Source of the DNA: an uncultured Dehalococcoidia bacterium
GTDB taxonomy: Bacteria; Chloroflexota; Dehalococcoidia; Lucifugimonadales; JADFKI01
DNA length: 64,000 nt
Reading direction: 5' to 3'
Assembly (NCBI GenBank): GCA_958295865.1
Contig: CATQHF010000001.1
Coordinates: 496,001 to 560,000 of the forward strand
Under the pieces are notes generated by a model. That model did no database searches and was not told the origin of the DNA. It saw only the letters and a list, made by a program, of their open reading frames with translations. This document shows, in pieces, positions 30,577 to 34,211 of the stretch (within the stretch, counting starts at the first letter, position 1; each line of letters opens with the position of its first letter). Position numbers and translations under genes: made by a program.

Positions 30577-31523
30577 CAGATTTGCCCTTCGGAGCGCTCG
30601 GTCTCATCGGCGGCGCCTGTGTTTTCCTGCGCTTCTTCCAGCGGCGCTATGTCTTGAAATAGCGTTTTTATGCGGTCTATCATCTGGGGGATTACGCTTT
30701 TGTCCTTGAGCATCTGTCCGGTTGTGCGCCGCGTGTGTCGCTCTATGTTGACAGTCCGATTGTCCATGACGGCGCGAGCGGACTTGAACGCCGCGGGCAA
30801 TATGACGCTGTCGCGGTAGAGGTCTGCGATGTCTAGCGCGAAGGCTTCGCCGCTGTGTTCGTGGATGAAGCCGAGTTGCGGGATTGCGCCCACTGATGTG
30901 ACGGCTATGACCGCGGCGGATGTTACGGCGACGGATGCGTGGTTGATTGCTTGGTTGGGGATGTCGGCTGCGAGCGGGTTGGCTCTGTCATAGCGCCGCC
31001 CTCGCCATTCGATGCCGTGTTGCTGCGCGATGTTCCGGTAGGCGCGTCTTGCCCTCGCCCCTTCCATTCCGCGCAGCCGCTCGATGCTGTGATGGGGAAA
31101 TACCTCGCCGAGCCGCATGGCGTACATCCTGCGGGCGACGGTGATGCGGCTGCCGTCGGGGTCGCCCCACGCGCGCATCTGTCGGCGTGCCGTGTCCGAT
31201 GTGTCGGGCATCAAGGGCGGCGCGGTGTAGCACCTGACGCCATCCTCTCCGACTGCGACCAGCGCGGTGCCGTGCCGCGCCATCAGGCGCAGGGCGTCGT
31301 GGCTGACGGTGGAGCCGGGCCCCAGCAGTATCATGGAAAGCGTCTGAAAGGGTATGCCGTATTCGCCTTCGTCTAGCGGACTGCCGGAGTCGGGCGCGGC
31401 TTGGCGCTCGAAGCGCAGCGTGCCGTCTCGAACGGTCAGCGCGCCTCGACTAAGCCACAGCAGACCATGACGGTCGGCATGCGGGATTCTCGCGGTCTCT
31501 AGGCCTAGTCTGCCTCGCATCAT
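30576..31523 (-). CDS. cas1e: CRISPR-associated Cas1, type I-E
   Basis: GPGSTVSHDALRLMARHGTALVAVGEDGVRCY; LGFIHEHSGEAFALDIADLYR. Confidence 0.96.
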   Translation of the reverse strand: MMRGRLGLETARIPHADRHGLLWLSRGALTVRDGTLRFERQAAPDSGSPLDEGEYGIPFQTLSMILLGPGSTVSHDALRLMARHGTALVAVGEDGVRCYTAPPLMPDTSDTARRQMRAWGDPDGSRITVARRMYAMRLGEVFPHHSIERLRGMEGARARRAYRNIAQQHGIEWRGRRYDRANPLAADIPNQAINHASVAVTSAAVIAVTSVGAIPQLGFIHEHSGEAFALDIADLYRDSVILPAAFKSARAVMDNRTVNIERHTRRTTGQMLKDKSVIPQMIDRIKTLFQDIAPLEEAQENTGAADETERSEGQI

Positions 31524-31543
31524 GATTTGAGCTCACCTCCCGA

Positions 31544-31571
31544 GGTCTATCTCCGCGTGTGCAGGGGAACC
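31544..31571 (-). repeat. Solitary CRISPR repeat (2 mismatches) between the small RHH-like ORF and cas1
   Basis: GGTCTATCTCCGCGTGTGCAGGGGAACC, same orientation as main array, directly upstream of the cas1 SD. Confidence 0.95.
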
Positions 31572-31578
31572 CTCTGCG

Positions 31579-32037
31579 TTAATAAGCTGGCGGCAAGTCG
31601 CCCATTATGCCGTCTTGCGTCCAGTCCCCATTTGTGGGCTTCGGCTCACTCCATCCGTAGCCTCTCAAATAGTGCCTACAAGCAGACCCCCCGTGTATCA
31701 AATTGGGTGCCGTATACCACTCGTACACATCTGCCATCACGATGCGCTTCAAGAATTCGTTCGTGCTTATCTGGTATGCGTTTGCAGCATACCAGACCTT
31801 TTCGGCTACTTCGGTAGTCAGTGTATAGCCGAGTTCCTCCATCTTGCACTTGCACTTTTGCTTGGGCGCACTAGGTATTATCTTCCAGGTATCGCCATCC
31901 CTTTTGTTAATCGGCTCATTCCACCACTTTTGGGCTATCTGACAGATGTACTCGCTGATAGGCTTCTTCAAAGATTTCGCCATTCTGCGAATGTGGCTTG
32001 CGTCCTGCACAGGAACCCAGATTGTGCCAATGAACAT
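31579..32037 (-). CDS. Uncharacterised 152-aa protein between cas6e and cas1; possible tandem ribbon-helix-helix protein
   Basis: IWVPVQDASHIRRMAKSLKKPISEYICQIAQKWW and TLTTEVAEKVWYAANAYQISTNEFLKRIV both resemble RHH signatures. Confidence 0.6.
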   Translation of the reverse strand: MFIGTIWVPVQDASHIRRMAKSLKKPISEYICQIAQKWWNEPINKRDGDTWKIIPSAPKQKCKCKMEELGYTLTTEVAEKVWYAANAYQISTNEFLKRIVMADVYEWYTAPNLIHGGSACRHYLRGYGWSEPKPTNGDWTQDGIMGDLPPAY

Positions 32038-32186
32038 TGTTACTCACTCCTTATTCTGTCTTTATCTGCTGATACCTCGTTCCGGTTGACCGCTTTTTCT
32101 TGAACCCCTTGCGTTCCATCAGGGCAGAAAAGCCAGATATTTCTGGCATACCGCTTTGCGCGATTGTCTTGCCAACGCCCCTGATA

Positions 32187-32213
32187 GGTTTATCCCCGCG
32201 TGTGCGGGGGAAC
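32187..32213 (-). repeat. Solitary CRISPR repeat between cas6e and the 152-aa ORF
   Basis: GGTTTATCCCCGCGTGTGCGGGGGAAC, same orientation as main array. Confidence 0.95.
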
Positions 32214-32312
32214 TATTTTATTCCGATGTCGCTTTCTGTCCGCTGTTTCAATTCAGTTGTTAAGGTGCGTGAAAATATATCGGCGCTCTATGGTCAGCAG
32301 CCGCGCCGGCGT

Positions 32313-33155
32313 TCAGTAGGCTCGGGCAGGACGCAGCAGGAGCATGCCGTAGCCATAAGCCTTGTGCCTGCCGATGCCGTTTGCCAGCATATCGCCGAAT
32401 TTCGCCCCGTCGGTAATCTCAAGCTCGCCGCGCATCAGGGCGTCTGGTCCTTCGCTGTATCGCCGATGCAGCTTTCGGACGGCGCGGGTTCGGCGGAATG
32501 ATACGAGTTTCGTACTGCCTACATCAAGCATTGCGCCGCCCTTCTGCTCGAACCGCTTTTGCAGCCACTCCCGATACACCTTTTCGCGGCTGCGCCCGGC
32601 GCATGCCATGCCGTGCCTATCCGAATGTTCGAGGGCTTCATTCAGGAAGGCGTCCCGTTCAGGGTTTGGCAGGCGGCAGCCGTCGCACTTGTGCTTGCGG
32701 TCAAGTCGTATGAGCTCGTAGCATTCGGCGCTCTTCTTTTTGTAGCGTCGCACTACGGGGCGAATCCGCGCTTCGAACCCCAGCCGTCTGCCGGCTTGCC
32801 ATGTGGAGGGCATACGCTTGCTGTCCAAGCTTGCGAGCGGCAGCGCCTTCTCCTGCAACGGGCAGGCGAACAGGCTTGCCGTATCGCGCAGCTCATCAGC
32901 GTCGGCGCGCGAGTAGCCGTAGAGTGTGCCGCGCCGCCCATCGCGCGGGATTATCAGGCGGAACGGCTGCGGTCGCCGCTCTATGTCGTTGCCGAAGCAC
33001 TCGGTCAGAAGGCAGTGCATCGCATGGTCGTCGTCCACGATTTGCCGACTGCCCATCCAGCGGCGGAACTGGAGCGTATCGATGTCGGCGCGTATTATGT
33101 GAAGGACGCCGGTTGCCTTTGCGGTATCCTTGTCGGCAATCATCGCGGTAGTCAT
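32313..33155 (-). CDS. cas6e: Cas6e/CasE (Cse3) crRNA endoribonuclease
   Basis: HCLLTECFG...RPQPFRLI; GIGRHKAYGYGMLLL C-terminal motif; start overlaps cas5e stop. Confidence 0.94.
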   Translation of the reverse strand: MTTAMIADKDTAKATGVLHIIRADIDTLQFRRWMGSRQIVDDDHAMHCLLTECFGNDIERRPQPFRLIIPRDGRRGTLYGYSRADADELRDTASLFACPLQEKALPLASLDSKRMPSTWQAGRRLGFEARIRPVVRRYKKKSAECYELIRLDRKHKCDGCRLPNPERDAFLNEALEHSDRHGMACAGRSREKVYREWLQKRFEQKGGAMLDVGSTKLVSFRRTRAVRKLHRRYSEGPDALMRGELEITDGAKFGDMLANGIGRHKAYGYGMLLLRPARAY

Positions 33156-33928
33156 TCTTCACCGTCCTTCTCGCAGCCTTGCGCCGCGCGCCGCTTCCCG
33201 AAGCGGGACTTGTCCACTCTGCCCTCATGCACCAGACGACCGCCGCCGTGCAGCCCGGAGACCCAGTTGCGCTCGTCGGTGAGCATGTAGCTTCGGTTCG
33301 CGCTGACTTCATCCTCGCCGTCATTCCACTGCATCGCCACGTGCTGGGGCGCGTCGTCCTGATATTCCAGCGGCGTATTCAGCAGCGCGGCGAGGCATGT
33401 GTCGCCCTCATCGCTGAAGCCGCCAAACATCGGAGCGGACGGCAGACACGGCTTGCGCCCGATGAACAGGGGGCGCATCGGCTCTTGCAGCGCGTCCGCA
33501 AGTTCGTCGAGCGTTGGCGCATTGGCATCATCGGTATCGCGCAGGCGCAGGGCTACGCACACGCGCATATCGGTATAATAATCGCGGTAGCGCAGGTGCG
33601 GCGCGTTGTATGTGGCAGCGCCGCCCGCCCTGCCCTCGGGAACGCCGCGCGTAGTCCAGCCCCTGTCTGTCCTGGCCAATTGCGCCGTCTGAAAGTCGGT
33701 CATGCTGACGCCGCCCGCCGGTTCGCGCTCTATGCGAGTGGCGAATACCAGCCTGTCTTGCAAGTCCTGATGCTTCTGCCGTTCGATGCGCCGCCAGCCG
33801 AGCGCGTTGGCGAATATGCCGGTGAGCATGGAGGCGGCGGGAAAGCGGCGGATGACGCCAAGATTGTCGATGGTCTCGCCGCCGAACGCCATCAACGGCG
33901 ATTCCAAGCGCATAATCAAGTGTTTCAT
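33152..33928 (-). CDS. cas5e: Cas5e/CasD
   Basis: MKHLIMRLESPLMAFGGETIDNLGVIRRFPAASMLTGIFANALGW. Confidence 0.95.
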   Translation of the reverse strand: MKHLIMRLESPLMAFGGETIDNLGVIRRFPAASMLTGIFANALGWRRIERQKHQDLQDRLVFATRIEREPAGGVSMTDFQTAQLARTDRGWTTRGVPEGRAGGAATYNAPHLRYRDYYTDMRVCVALRLRDTDDANAPTLDELADALQEPMRPLFIGRKPCLPSAPMFGGFSDEGDTCLAALLNTPLEYQDDAPQHVAMQWNDGEDEVSANRSYMLTDERNWVSGLHGGGRLVHEGRVDKSRFGKRRAAQGCEKDGEE

Positions 33929-33940
33929 AAAATCCTCTCC

Positions 33941-34211
33941 GTTTATCCCCGCGTGTGCGGGGGAGCCGTCTCCATCATCCCCATCATCGCCATCACCGGC
34001 GGTTTATCCCCGCGTGTGCGGGGGAGCCTGTGGCAGTGTCAGGATGAACACGATGTAGCCGGGTCTATCCTCGCGTGTGCGGGGGAACCGCGAACTCGCA
34101 GGCGATGTCGTGCGGCATCTGAGGTCTATCCCCGCGTGTGCGGGGGAACCCAGGGAACCCAGAGGCCGTGCCAGTTGATTTCGGGTCTATCCCCGCATGT
34201 GCGGAAGGATT
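33941..34211 (-). CRISPR. Mini CRISPR array (5 repeats, 4 spacers) between cas7e and cas5e
   Basis: Repeats at 33941, 34001, 34062, 34123 and degenerate 34184, 61-bp period; first two carry GGGGGAGCC variant. Confidence 0.95.

What the first reader, a model, noticed from the sequence alone, without database searches (positions are those of the whole stretch)
31523..33967. CRISPR repeats sit directly before cas ribosome-binding sites: possible Cas6e processing of the cas mRNA
On the minus strand the repeat before cas5e reads ...GGGGATAAAC-GGAGAGGATTTT-ATG, and the one before cas1 reads ...GGAGATAGACCTC-GGGAGGTGAGCTCAAATC-ATGATG. In both cases the repeat hairpin ends a few nt before the SD. A third repeat lies between cas6e and the 152-aa ORF. 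Cas6e cuts at the 3' base of the repeat hairpin, so it could cut the polycistronic mRNA into cas7, cas5-cas6, RHH-ORF and cas1-cas2 pieces. This would give feedback control of effector versus adaptation genes.
Basis: partly seen in the sequence, partly recalled or inferred. Interest (0 to 1): 0.85.

Follow-up and report, generated by a model that had tools for sequence, protein, structure and literature searches.

The report
CRISPR repeats inside a cas operon
A sponge-symbiont bacterium carries copies of its own CRISPR repeat between its cas genes; one of them, next to an rRNA-type antitermination signal in front of cas1, is conserved in relatives as a bare hairpin and may be a cutting site that separates the effector messenger from the cas1-cas2-array transcript, although no cutting has been shown.

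Summary
The repeats are real and on the coding strand: five between cas7 and cas5, one after cas6e, one before cas1. (1) The cas7|cas5 mini-array is an insertion unique to this genome among 35 relatives. (2) The cas1-proximal copy has two stem substitutions and no longer folds as a Cas6e hairpin. (3) The cas6|cas1 boundary of related Chloroflexi carries a true boxA: in this genome the motif occurs only there and just before the 16S and 23S rRNA genes. A CCCCGC-N4-GCGGGG hairpin identical to the array stem follows it in 10 of 29 loci (0.17 expected), stem kept, crRNA handle lost. The cas2-array leader there is short and lacks boxA; in other clades boxA sits in that leader. (4) The guide-type regulator here is a different element, an antisense mini-CRISPR between cas3 and cas8e; in 15 of 19 loci its spacer matches a nearby target with an AA PAM and free sixth positions, the CreA/CreR signature. 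Cas6e cutting at the cas6|cas1 boundary is plausible and partly supported; feedback control is untested.

The parts
33940..34211 (-). Mini-array of five repeats and four 33-nt spacers between cas7 and cas5 (repeats at 34184-34211, 34123-34150, 34062-34089, 34001-34028, 33940-33967)
   Evidence: absent from 35 relatives, whose cas7|cas5 gap is 5-70 nt
33940..33967 (-). Repeat immediately upstream of the cas5e Shine-Dalgarno; predicted Cas6e cut between 33947 and 33946, leaving an 18-nt 5' leader before the cas5 ATG
   Evidence: cut position inferred from Cas6e specificity
33152..33928 (-). cas5e
   Evidence: TIGR01868
32313..33155 (-). cas6e
   Evidence: TIGR01907 and PF08798
32251..32268 (-). 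boxA (GCACCTTAACAACTGAAT)
   Evidence: found three times in the genome, the other two just before 16S and 23S rRNA; conserved in the cas6|cas1 gap of relatives
32187..32214 (-). Solo repeat with intact stem; predicted Cas6e cut between 32194 and 32193
   Evidence: cut position inferred
31579..32037 (-). Orphan 152-aa ORF inside a 615-nt insert (31572-32186) flanked by the two solo repeats
31544..31571 (-). Solo repeat before the cas1 Shine-Dalgarno, stem broken by two substitutions; corresponds to the single hairpin in the same-genus locus L046
30576..31523 (-). cas1
   Evidence: TIGR03638
30289..30576 (-). cas2
   Evidence: TIGR01873
30239..30288 (-). 50-nt leader without boxA
24231..30238 (-). 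Main CRISPR array, about 99 repeats, co-directional with cas1-cas2
38549..38637 (+). Antisense two-repeat mini-CRISPR between cas3 and cas8e, at the position of the CreA/CreR-like element of relatives (here without a recognisable target)
34211..35365 (-). cas7
   Evidence: TIGR01869
35378..36382 (-). VRR-NUC-Cse2 (Cas11) fusion
   Evidence: PF09485 and a sub-threshold PF08774 match
36386..37993 (-). cas8e/cse1
   Evidence: TIGR02547 below cut-off
39106..41820 (-). cas3

Best explanation
The sense repeats are displaced copies of the array's own repeat inside the cas transcription unit. The ancestral one marks the head of a cas1-cas2-array transcription unit: an rrn-type boxA followed by a Cas6e-type hairpin at the cas6|cas1 boundary. 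Polymerase that has passed boxA is modified by Nus factors and reads through cas1, cas2 and the 6-kb untranslated array. Cas6e cuts the boundary hairpin, detaching the effector mRNA (cas8e to cas6e) from the cas1-cas2-array precursor, and cuts again at the first array repeat 50 nt after cas2. In this genome two later insertions modified the scheme. A 615-nt segment with an orphan ORF lies between two copies of the boundary repeat; the upstream copy kept an intact stem and the downstream one decayed. A five-repeat mini-array lies between cas7 and cas5, adding four crRNAs and a cut site 18 nt before the cas5 start. Shown: the sequences, the boxA identity, conservation and stem-selective retention. 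Inferred: Nus antitermination of this unit, cleavage in the cell, and any effect on expression.
For: boxA: within 3 mismatches the motif occurs three times in 3.4 Mb, at the cas6|cas1 gap and just before 16S and 23S rRNA; the control gave 0. In loci with Cas1 at 68% identity or more, boxA within 3 mismatches is in the gap in 21 of 26; by a stricter pattern 17 of 26 (0.6 expected) and only 1 of 21 in the cas2-array leader. In loci with other Cas1, boxA is in the leader in 18 of 33 (0.6 expected) and in the gap in 0 of 8. Leaders in the first clade are mostly 29-63 nt (6 nt in L064; up to 87), so the array is probably transcribed with cas1-cas2. Hairpin: CCCCGC-N4-GCGGGG in 10 of 29 gaps against 0.17 expected. 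Substitutions against the array repeat: stem 2 of 132 sites, loop 10 of 44, handle 26 of 77, 5' flank 25 of 55, so the part Cas6e reads is kept and the crRNA handle is not. The same-genus locus L046 has one hairpin at that place, followed by the same SD region as the downstream window copy. Engineered repeats in UTRs, cut by Cas RNases such as Csy4, do control mRNAs (PMC12191184).
Against: 19 of 29 loci lack an intact repeat-type hairpin; they carry a different strong hairpin or none, so it is not essential. The stem statistic is partly biased, because the searches looked for stem-like elements and the L058 entry came from a stem requirement. The cas1-proximal copy in the window is stem-broken. 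The stem sequence does not vary in this clade, so covariation with the array repeat could not be tested. The window Cas6e found no sequence match in the PDB, so its catalytic residues were not checked. No transcript ends or promoters are known.
Confidence: 0.5

Rival explanations
1. The repeats are relics and by-products: a decayed leader plus first repeat of an old array at the cas6|cas1 boundary, and off-target spacer integration or recombination with the array elsewhere. Cas6e may nick the messages but this is incidental.
For: boxA followed by a repeat has the same order as the leader of other clades. Repeat duplication around the 615-nt insert and the regular 61-nt period at cas7|cas5 look like integration or recombination products. 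The cas7|cas5 array is a singleton. Some copies are decaying (31544; a second degenerate element in L060; TCCCC remnants in L050, L054, L057, L076).
Against: Stem kept with handle lost in about six lineages is not what uniform decay gives. boxA is better conserved than the hairpin and is found here instead of in the short leader, so the boundary is probably under selection at least for boxA.
Confidence: 0.32
2. The boundary hairpin works as a generic 5' structure of the cas1 message (protection from decay, RNase III site, or masking of the Shine-Dalgarno) without Cas6e.
For: Several relatives without the repeat-type stem have other strong hairpins at this place (L047 z -3.8, L067 z -6.5, L072/L073 z -3.1, L075 z -2.7). 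In the cas5 copy, upstream CUC can pair with part of the SD.
Against: Where the hairpin is of repeat type it is the array stem exactly (12 of 12 positions), which a generic hairpin would not need. About nine loci have neither.
Confidence: 0.12
3. The sense repeats make crRNA-like guides (CreA/CreR) that direct Cascade to cas promoters.
For: Ectopic repeats with guide function are the known precedent (PMC8501985, PMC9458426, PMC12737573), and the antisense element of this locus in relatives behaves so.
Against: None of the seven sequences following the sense repeats in the window has an AA-PAM target with free sixth positions between 30000 and 42500. Sense elements of relatives gave none except a single weak L064 hit at p=0.02 among five tests. 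In relatives their 5' handles are mostly lost.
Confidence: 0.04

Closest known systems
CreTA / CreR ectopic repeats (CreA and cas-regulating guide RNAs)
   Same: Degenerate copies of the system's repeat outside the array, inside the cas locus, depending on Cas6; the antisense cas3|cas8e element of relatives matches it
   Different: The sense copies of the finding have no target, are often a single repeat, and in relatives keep the stem but lose the 5' handle, whereas CreA needs the handle and a spacer matching a promoter
boxA-dependent antitermination of CRISPR arrays (Stringer et al. 2020, eLife 58182; original not held, cited in PMC7862264)
   Same: rrn-type boxA upstream of a long CRISPR array
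   Different: Here boxA lies upstream of cas1 rather than in the cas2-array leader, with a repeat-type hairpin after it in a third of the loci
Engineered Cas-RNase sites in UTRs (DREDGE, PMC11988398 and PMC12191184)
   Same: A direct repeat placed in an mRNA UTR to be cut by its cognate Cas RNase
   Different: Synthetic; a natural counterpart in a cas operon would be new as far as the held papers show
Viral solitary repeats (RNA-based anti-CRISPRs, Racr; PMC10651486)
   Same: Solitary repeats that mimic the array repeat
   Different: Here they are in the host's own cas operon and in its mRNA

Membership tests
CRISPR array (cas7|cas5 mini-array) | Several near-identical repeats at regular spacing with unique spacers | tested here: met
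   Five repeats, period 61 nt, four different 33-nt spacers
CRISPR array (cas7|cas5 mini-array) | Spacers matching foreign elements | tested here: inconclusive
   22-nt cores of spacers 2 and 3 have no exact match in IMG/VR; spacers 1 and 4 not searched there
CreA/CreR, sense copies of the finding | Spacer analogue matching a cas or toxin promoter next to a PAM, sixth positions free | tested here: not met
   window; relatives
CreA/CreR, sense copies of the finding | Intact 5' handle after the first repeat analogue | tested here: not met
   Handle mismatches at 26 of 77 sites in the cas6|cas1 elements; largely intact only in the window copies, L046 and L060
CreA/CreR, antisense cas3|cas8e element of relatives | psiR1 - psiS - psiR2, psiR1 more diverged, handle kept on psiR1 | tested here: met
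CreA/CreR, antisense cas3|cas8e element of relatives | Partial match to a nearby target with PAM, sixth positions free | tested here: met
   15 of 19 loci at shuffle p of 0.015 or less, all with AA before the protospacer; not met in the window itself
CreA/CreR, antisense cas3|cas8e element of relatives | Cascade-dependent repression | not testable with these tools
   needs experiment
boxA (Nus antitermination site) | Same sequence as the rrn boxA of the genome | tested here: met
boxA (Nus antitermination site) | NusB/NusE binding and suppression of Rho termination | not testable with these tools
   needs experiment
Cas6e processing site | Six-bp CCCCGC/GCGGGG stem with tetraloop in the transcribed sense | tested here: met
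   33940 and 32187 copies and relatives; not met by the 31544 copy
Cas6e processing site | Cleavage 3' of the stem by the cognate Cas6e | not testable with these tools
   no RNA data
Ribbon-helix-helix protein (152-aa ORF) | Match to an RHH profile | tested here: not met
   No Pfam family even at E=10

The most novel reading that the evidence does not exclude
A natural operon in which the crRNA-processing enzyme cuts its own operon's mRNA: a boxA plus a stem-only Cas6e hairpin at the cas6|cas1 boundary makes cas1-cas2 a passenger of the antiterminated pre-crRNA, excised on both sides by Cas6e, so that Cas6e level and array transcription jointly set the ratio of adaptation to effector message.
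Probability: 0.35. Interest if true: 0.78.

Novelty: new variant of a known kind. Interest (0 to 1): 0.6.

Why it matters
If Cas6e cuts cas mRNA at a conserved site, crRNA processing and cas expression are directly linked, giving a simple way to balance adaptation genes against effector genes and to sense free Cas6e. The position of boxA before cas1 would explain how long arrays with very short leaders are transcribed in these sponge symbionts. The same loci carry a strongly supported CreA/CreR-type element in a type I-E system, so two repeat-derived control elements can be compared in one operon.

Tried and rejected
Phage origin of the 615-nt insert and its ORF: no match in GenBank phages or IMG/VR, no Pfam match for the ORF or for the short reading frame that resembled a primase tail; left open. 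Spacer-guided role of the sense repeats: no targets. Exact matches of mini-array spacers 2 and 3 in IMG/VR: none. Plasmid relatives of the locus: none. A universal hairpin requirement in the gap: not supported, about nine loci have none. The viral-contig scan with the Cas7 alignment gave no answer. The eLife boxA paper is not held and is cited through another paper. Paper searches found no report of natural Cas6 cutting of cas mRNA, but the library is partial. Covariation of the boundary stem with the array stem could not be tested because the stem is the same in all these loci.

Full report
WHAT IS THERE. The window lies in a 3.4-Mb genome whose nearest named relatives are SAR202/Dehalococcoidia metagenome assemblies, a group known from sponges (general knowledge). 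On the minus strand it holds a complete type I-E system: cas3, cas8e, a VRR-NUC-Cse2 fusion, cas7, cas5, cas6e, a 152-aa ORF, cas1, cas2 and an array of about 99 repeats. Outside the array there are nine repeat copies in the locus. Seven are in the sense of the cas genes: five in a regular mini-array between cas7 and cas5, one at 32187-32214 and one at 31544-31571. Two are in the opposite sense, between cas3 and cas8e. The quoted sequences are correct. The copy before cas1 carries two stem substitutions and does not form the repeat hairpin.

THE cas7|cas5 MINI-ARRAY. In 35 relatives with Cas7 at 64% identity or more, cas5 starts 5-70 nt after cas7 and no repeat is present. The mini-array is therefore best read as an insertion in this lineage; it replaced the tight cas7-cas5 junction, and an SD (GGAGAGG) lies right behind the last repeat. 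Its repeats keep usable handles, so it should give four crRNAs, and Cas6e cutting at the last repeat would leave the cas5-cas6 message with an 18-nt leader. This is inference from the known specificity of Cas6e. None of its spacers has a CreR-like target in the operon region.

THE cas6|cas1 BOUNDARY. The gap contains GCACCTTAACAACTGAAT. Allowing three mismatches, the genome has this motif three times: here, just upstream of the 16S rRNA gene and just upstream of the 23S rRNA gene; the reversed control has none. It is therefore the genome's rrn-type boxA. In loci with Cas1 at 68% identity or more it is found in this gap within three mismatches in 21 of 26; in loci with other Cas1 families a boxA-like motif is instead in the leader between cas2 and the array (18 of 33 against 0.6 expected). 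Leaders of the first group are mostly 29-63 nt, in one case 6 nt. boxA elements upstream of CRISPR arrays are known (Stringer et al. 2020, as cited in PMC7862264); the position upstream of cas1 is the variant seen here. I infer that cas1, cas2 and array form one antiterminated unit.

THE BOUNDARY HAIRPIN. Between boxA and the cas1 SD, 10 of 29 loci (the window's 32187 copy included) have the array stem CCCCGC-N4-GCGGGG; dinucleotide shuffles give 0.17. Across eleven distinct elements the stem differs from the array repeat at 2 of 132 sites (both in the window's 31544 copy), the handle at 26 of 77 and the 5' flank at 25 of 55. In L065 and L119 the hairpin runs straight into the SD. This pattern suits a Cas6e site better than a crRNA gene. 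Cautions: the search favoured stem-like elements, related loci are not independent (about six lineages), and many loci have other hairpins or none.

THE INSERT IN THIS GENOME. The same-genus locus L046 shows the simple state: boxA, one hairpin, SD, cas1. In the window 615 nt with an orphan ORF lie between two repeat copies; the upstream copy has the upstream context of L046's element and the downstream copy has its SD side. This looks like an insertion with repeat duplication, by integration or recombination. The ORF has no homologue and no Pfam match.

A SECOND REPEAT-DERIVED ELEMENT. Between cas3 and cas8e most of the Chloroflexi and Binatia loci carry an antisense two-repeat element in which the first repeat analogue typically has a degenerate stem but an intact handle, and the second an intact stem but a degenerate handle. 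In 15 of 19 loci its spacer matches a target close by, with AA immediately before the protospacer and mismatches tolerated at every sixth position (shuffle p of 0.015 or less). Matching at positions 1-5 and 7-11 next to a PAM is the published CreA signature (PMC8501985), and CreR is the published cas-autoregulating form (PMC12737573). In the window the element is present but its spacer has no such target. Several Alphaproteobacteria carry a similar two-repeat element in the sense direction, 13-19 nt before cas8e; two of nine show a supported target.

JUDGEMENT. The cas5 site is a private insertion and the cas1-adjacent copy here is broken, so the proposed four-piece cutting is not a conserved scheme; the predicted cuts in this genome are at 33947/33946, 32194/32193 and within the mini-array. 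Feedback control remains a hypothesis.

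Noticed in passing
window 38549-38637 and loci L046-L078 (19 tested): Antisense CreA/CreR-like mini-CRISPR between cas3 and cas8e; in 15 of 19 loci the spacer has an AA-PAM target with free sixth positions. Where the gap is long the target is 280-460 nt before cas8e, so a CreT-like toxin gene in between is possible.
   Followed up: partly
L083, L086, L088, L093, L094, L098, L103, L105, L115 upstream of cas8e: Alphaproteobacterial-type I-E loci have a sense psiR1-spacer-psiR2 element whose second hairpin ends 13-19 nt before the cas8e start.
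   Followed up: partly
window 35378-36382: VRR-NUC nuclease domain with PD-ExK motif fused to Cse2/Cas11; seven of the compared relatives share it, while the same-genus locus L046 aligns only to the Cse2 part. Such a fusion was reported in PMC10910872.
   Followed up: partly
window 38624-38794 and 39080-39250: The 3' end of cas3 is duplicated (92% identical over 171 nt), the second copy abutting the antisense repeat.
   Followed up: no
window 38082-38273: 63-aa cysteine-rich ORF between cas3 and cas8e, without a significant family; possible zinc-binding small protein.
   Followed up: no
L067 6600-7297 and L118 7190-7339: In two relatives the antisense element between cas3 and cas8e is a longer array (12 and 3 repeats).
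   Followed up: no
L036 4243-4880 (G000 contig 3): A second array with the same repeat, some copies ending ATAGTCC; tblastn with the window's Cas proteins found no cas gene in this 10-kb locus.
   Followed up: no
L047, L048, L067, L072, L073, L075 cas6|cas1 gap: Strong hairpins unrelated to the CRISPR repeat sit where other relatives have the repeat-type hairpin.
   Followed up: partly
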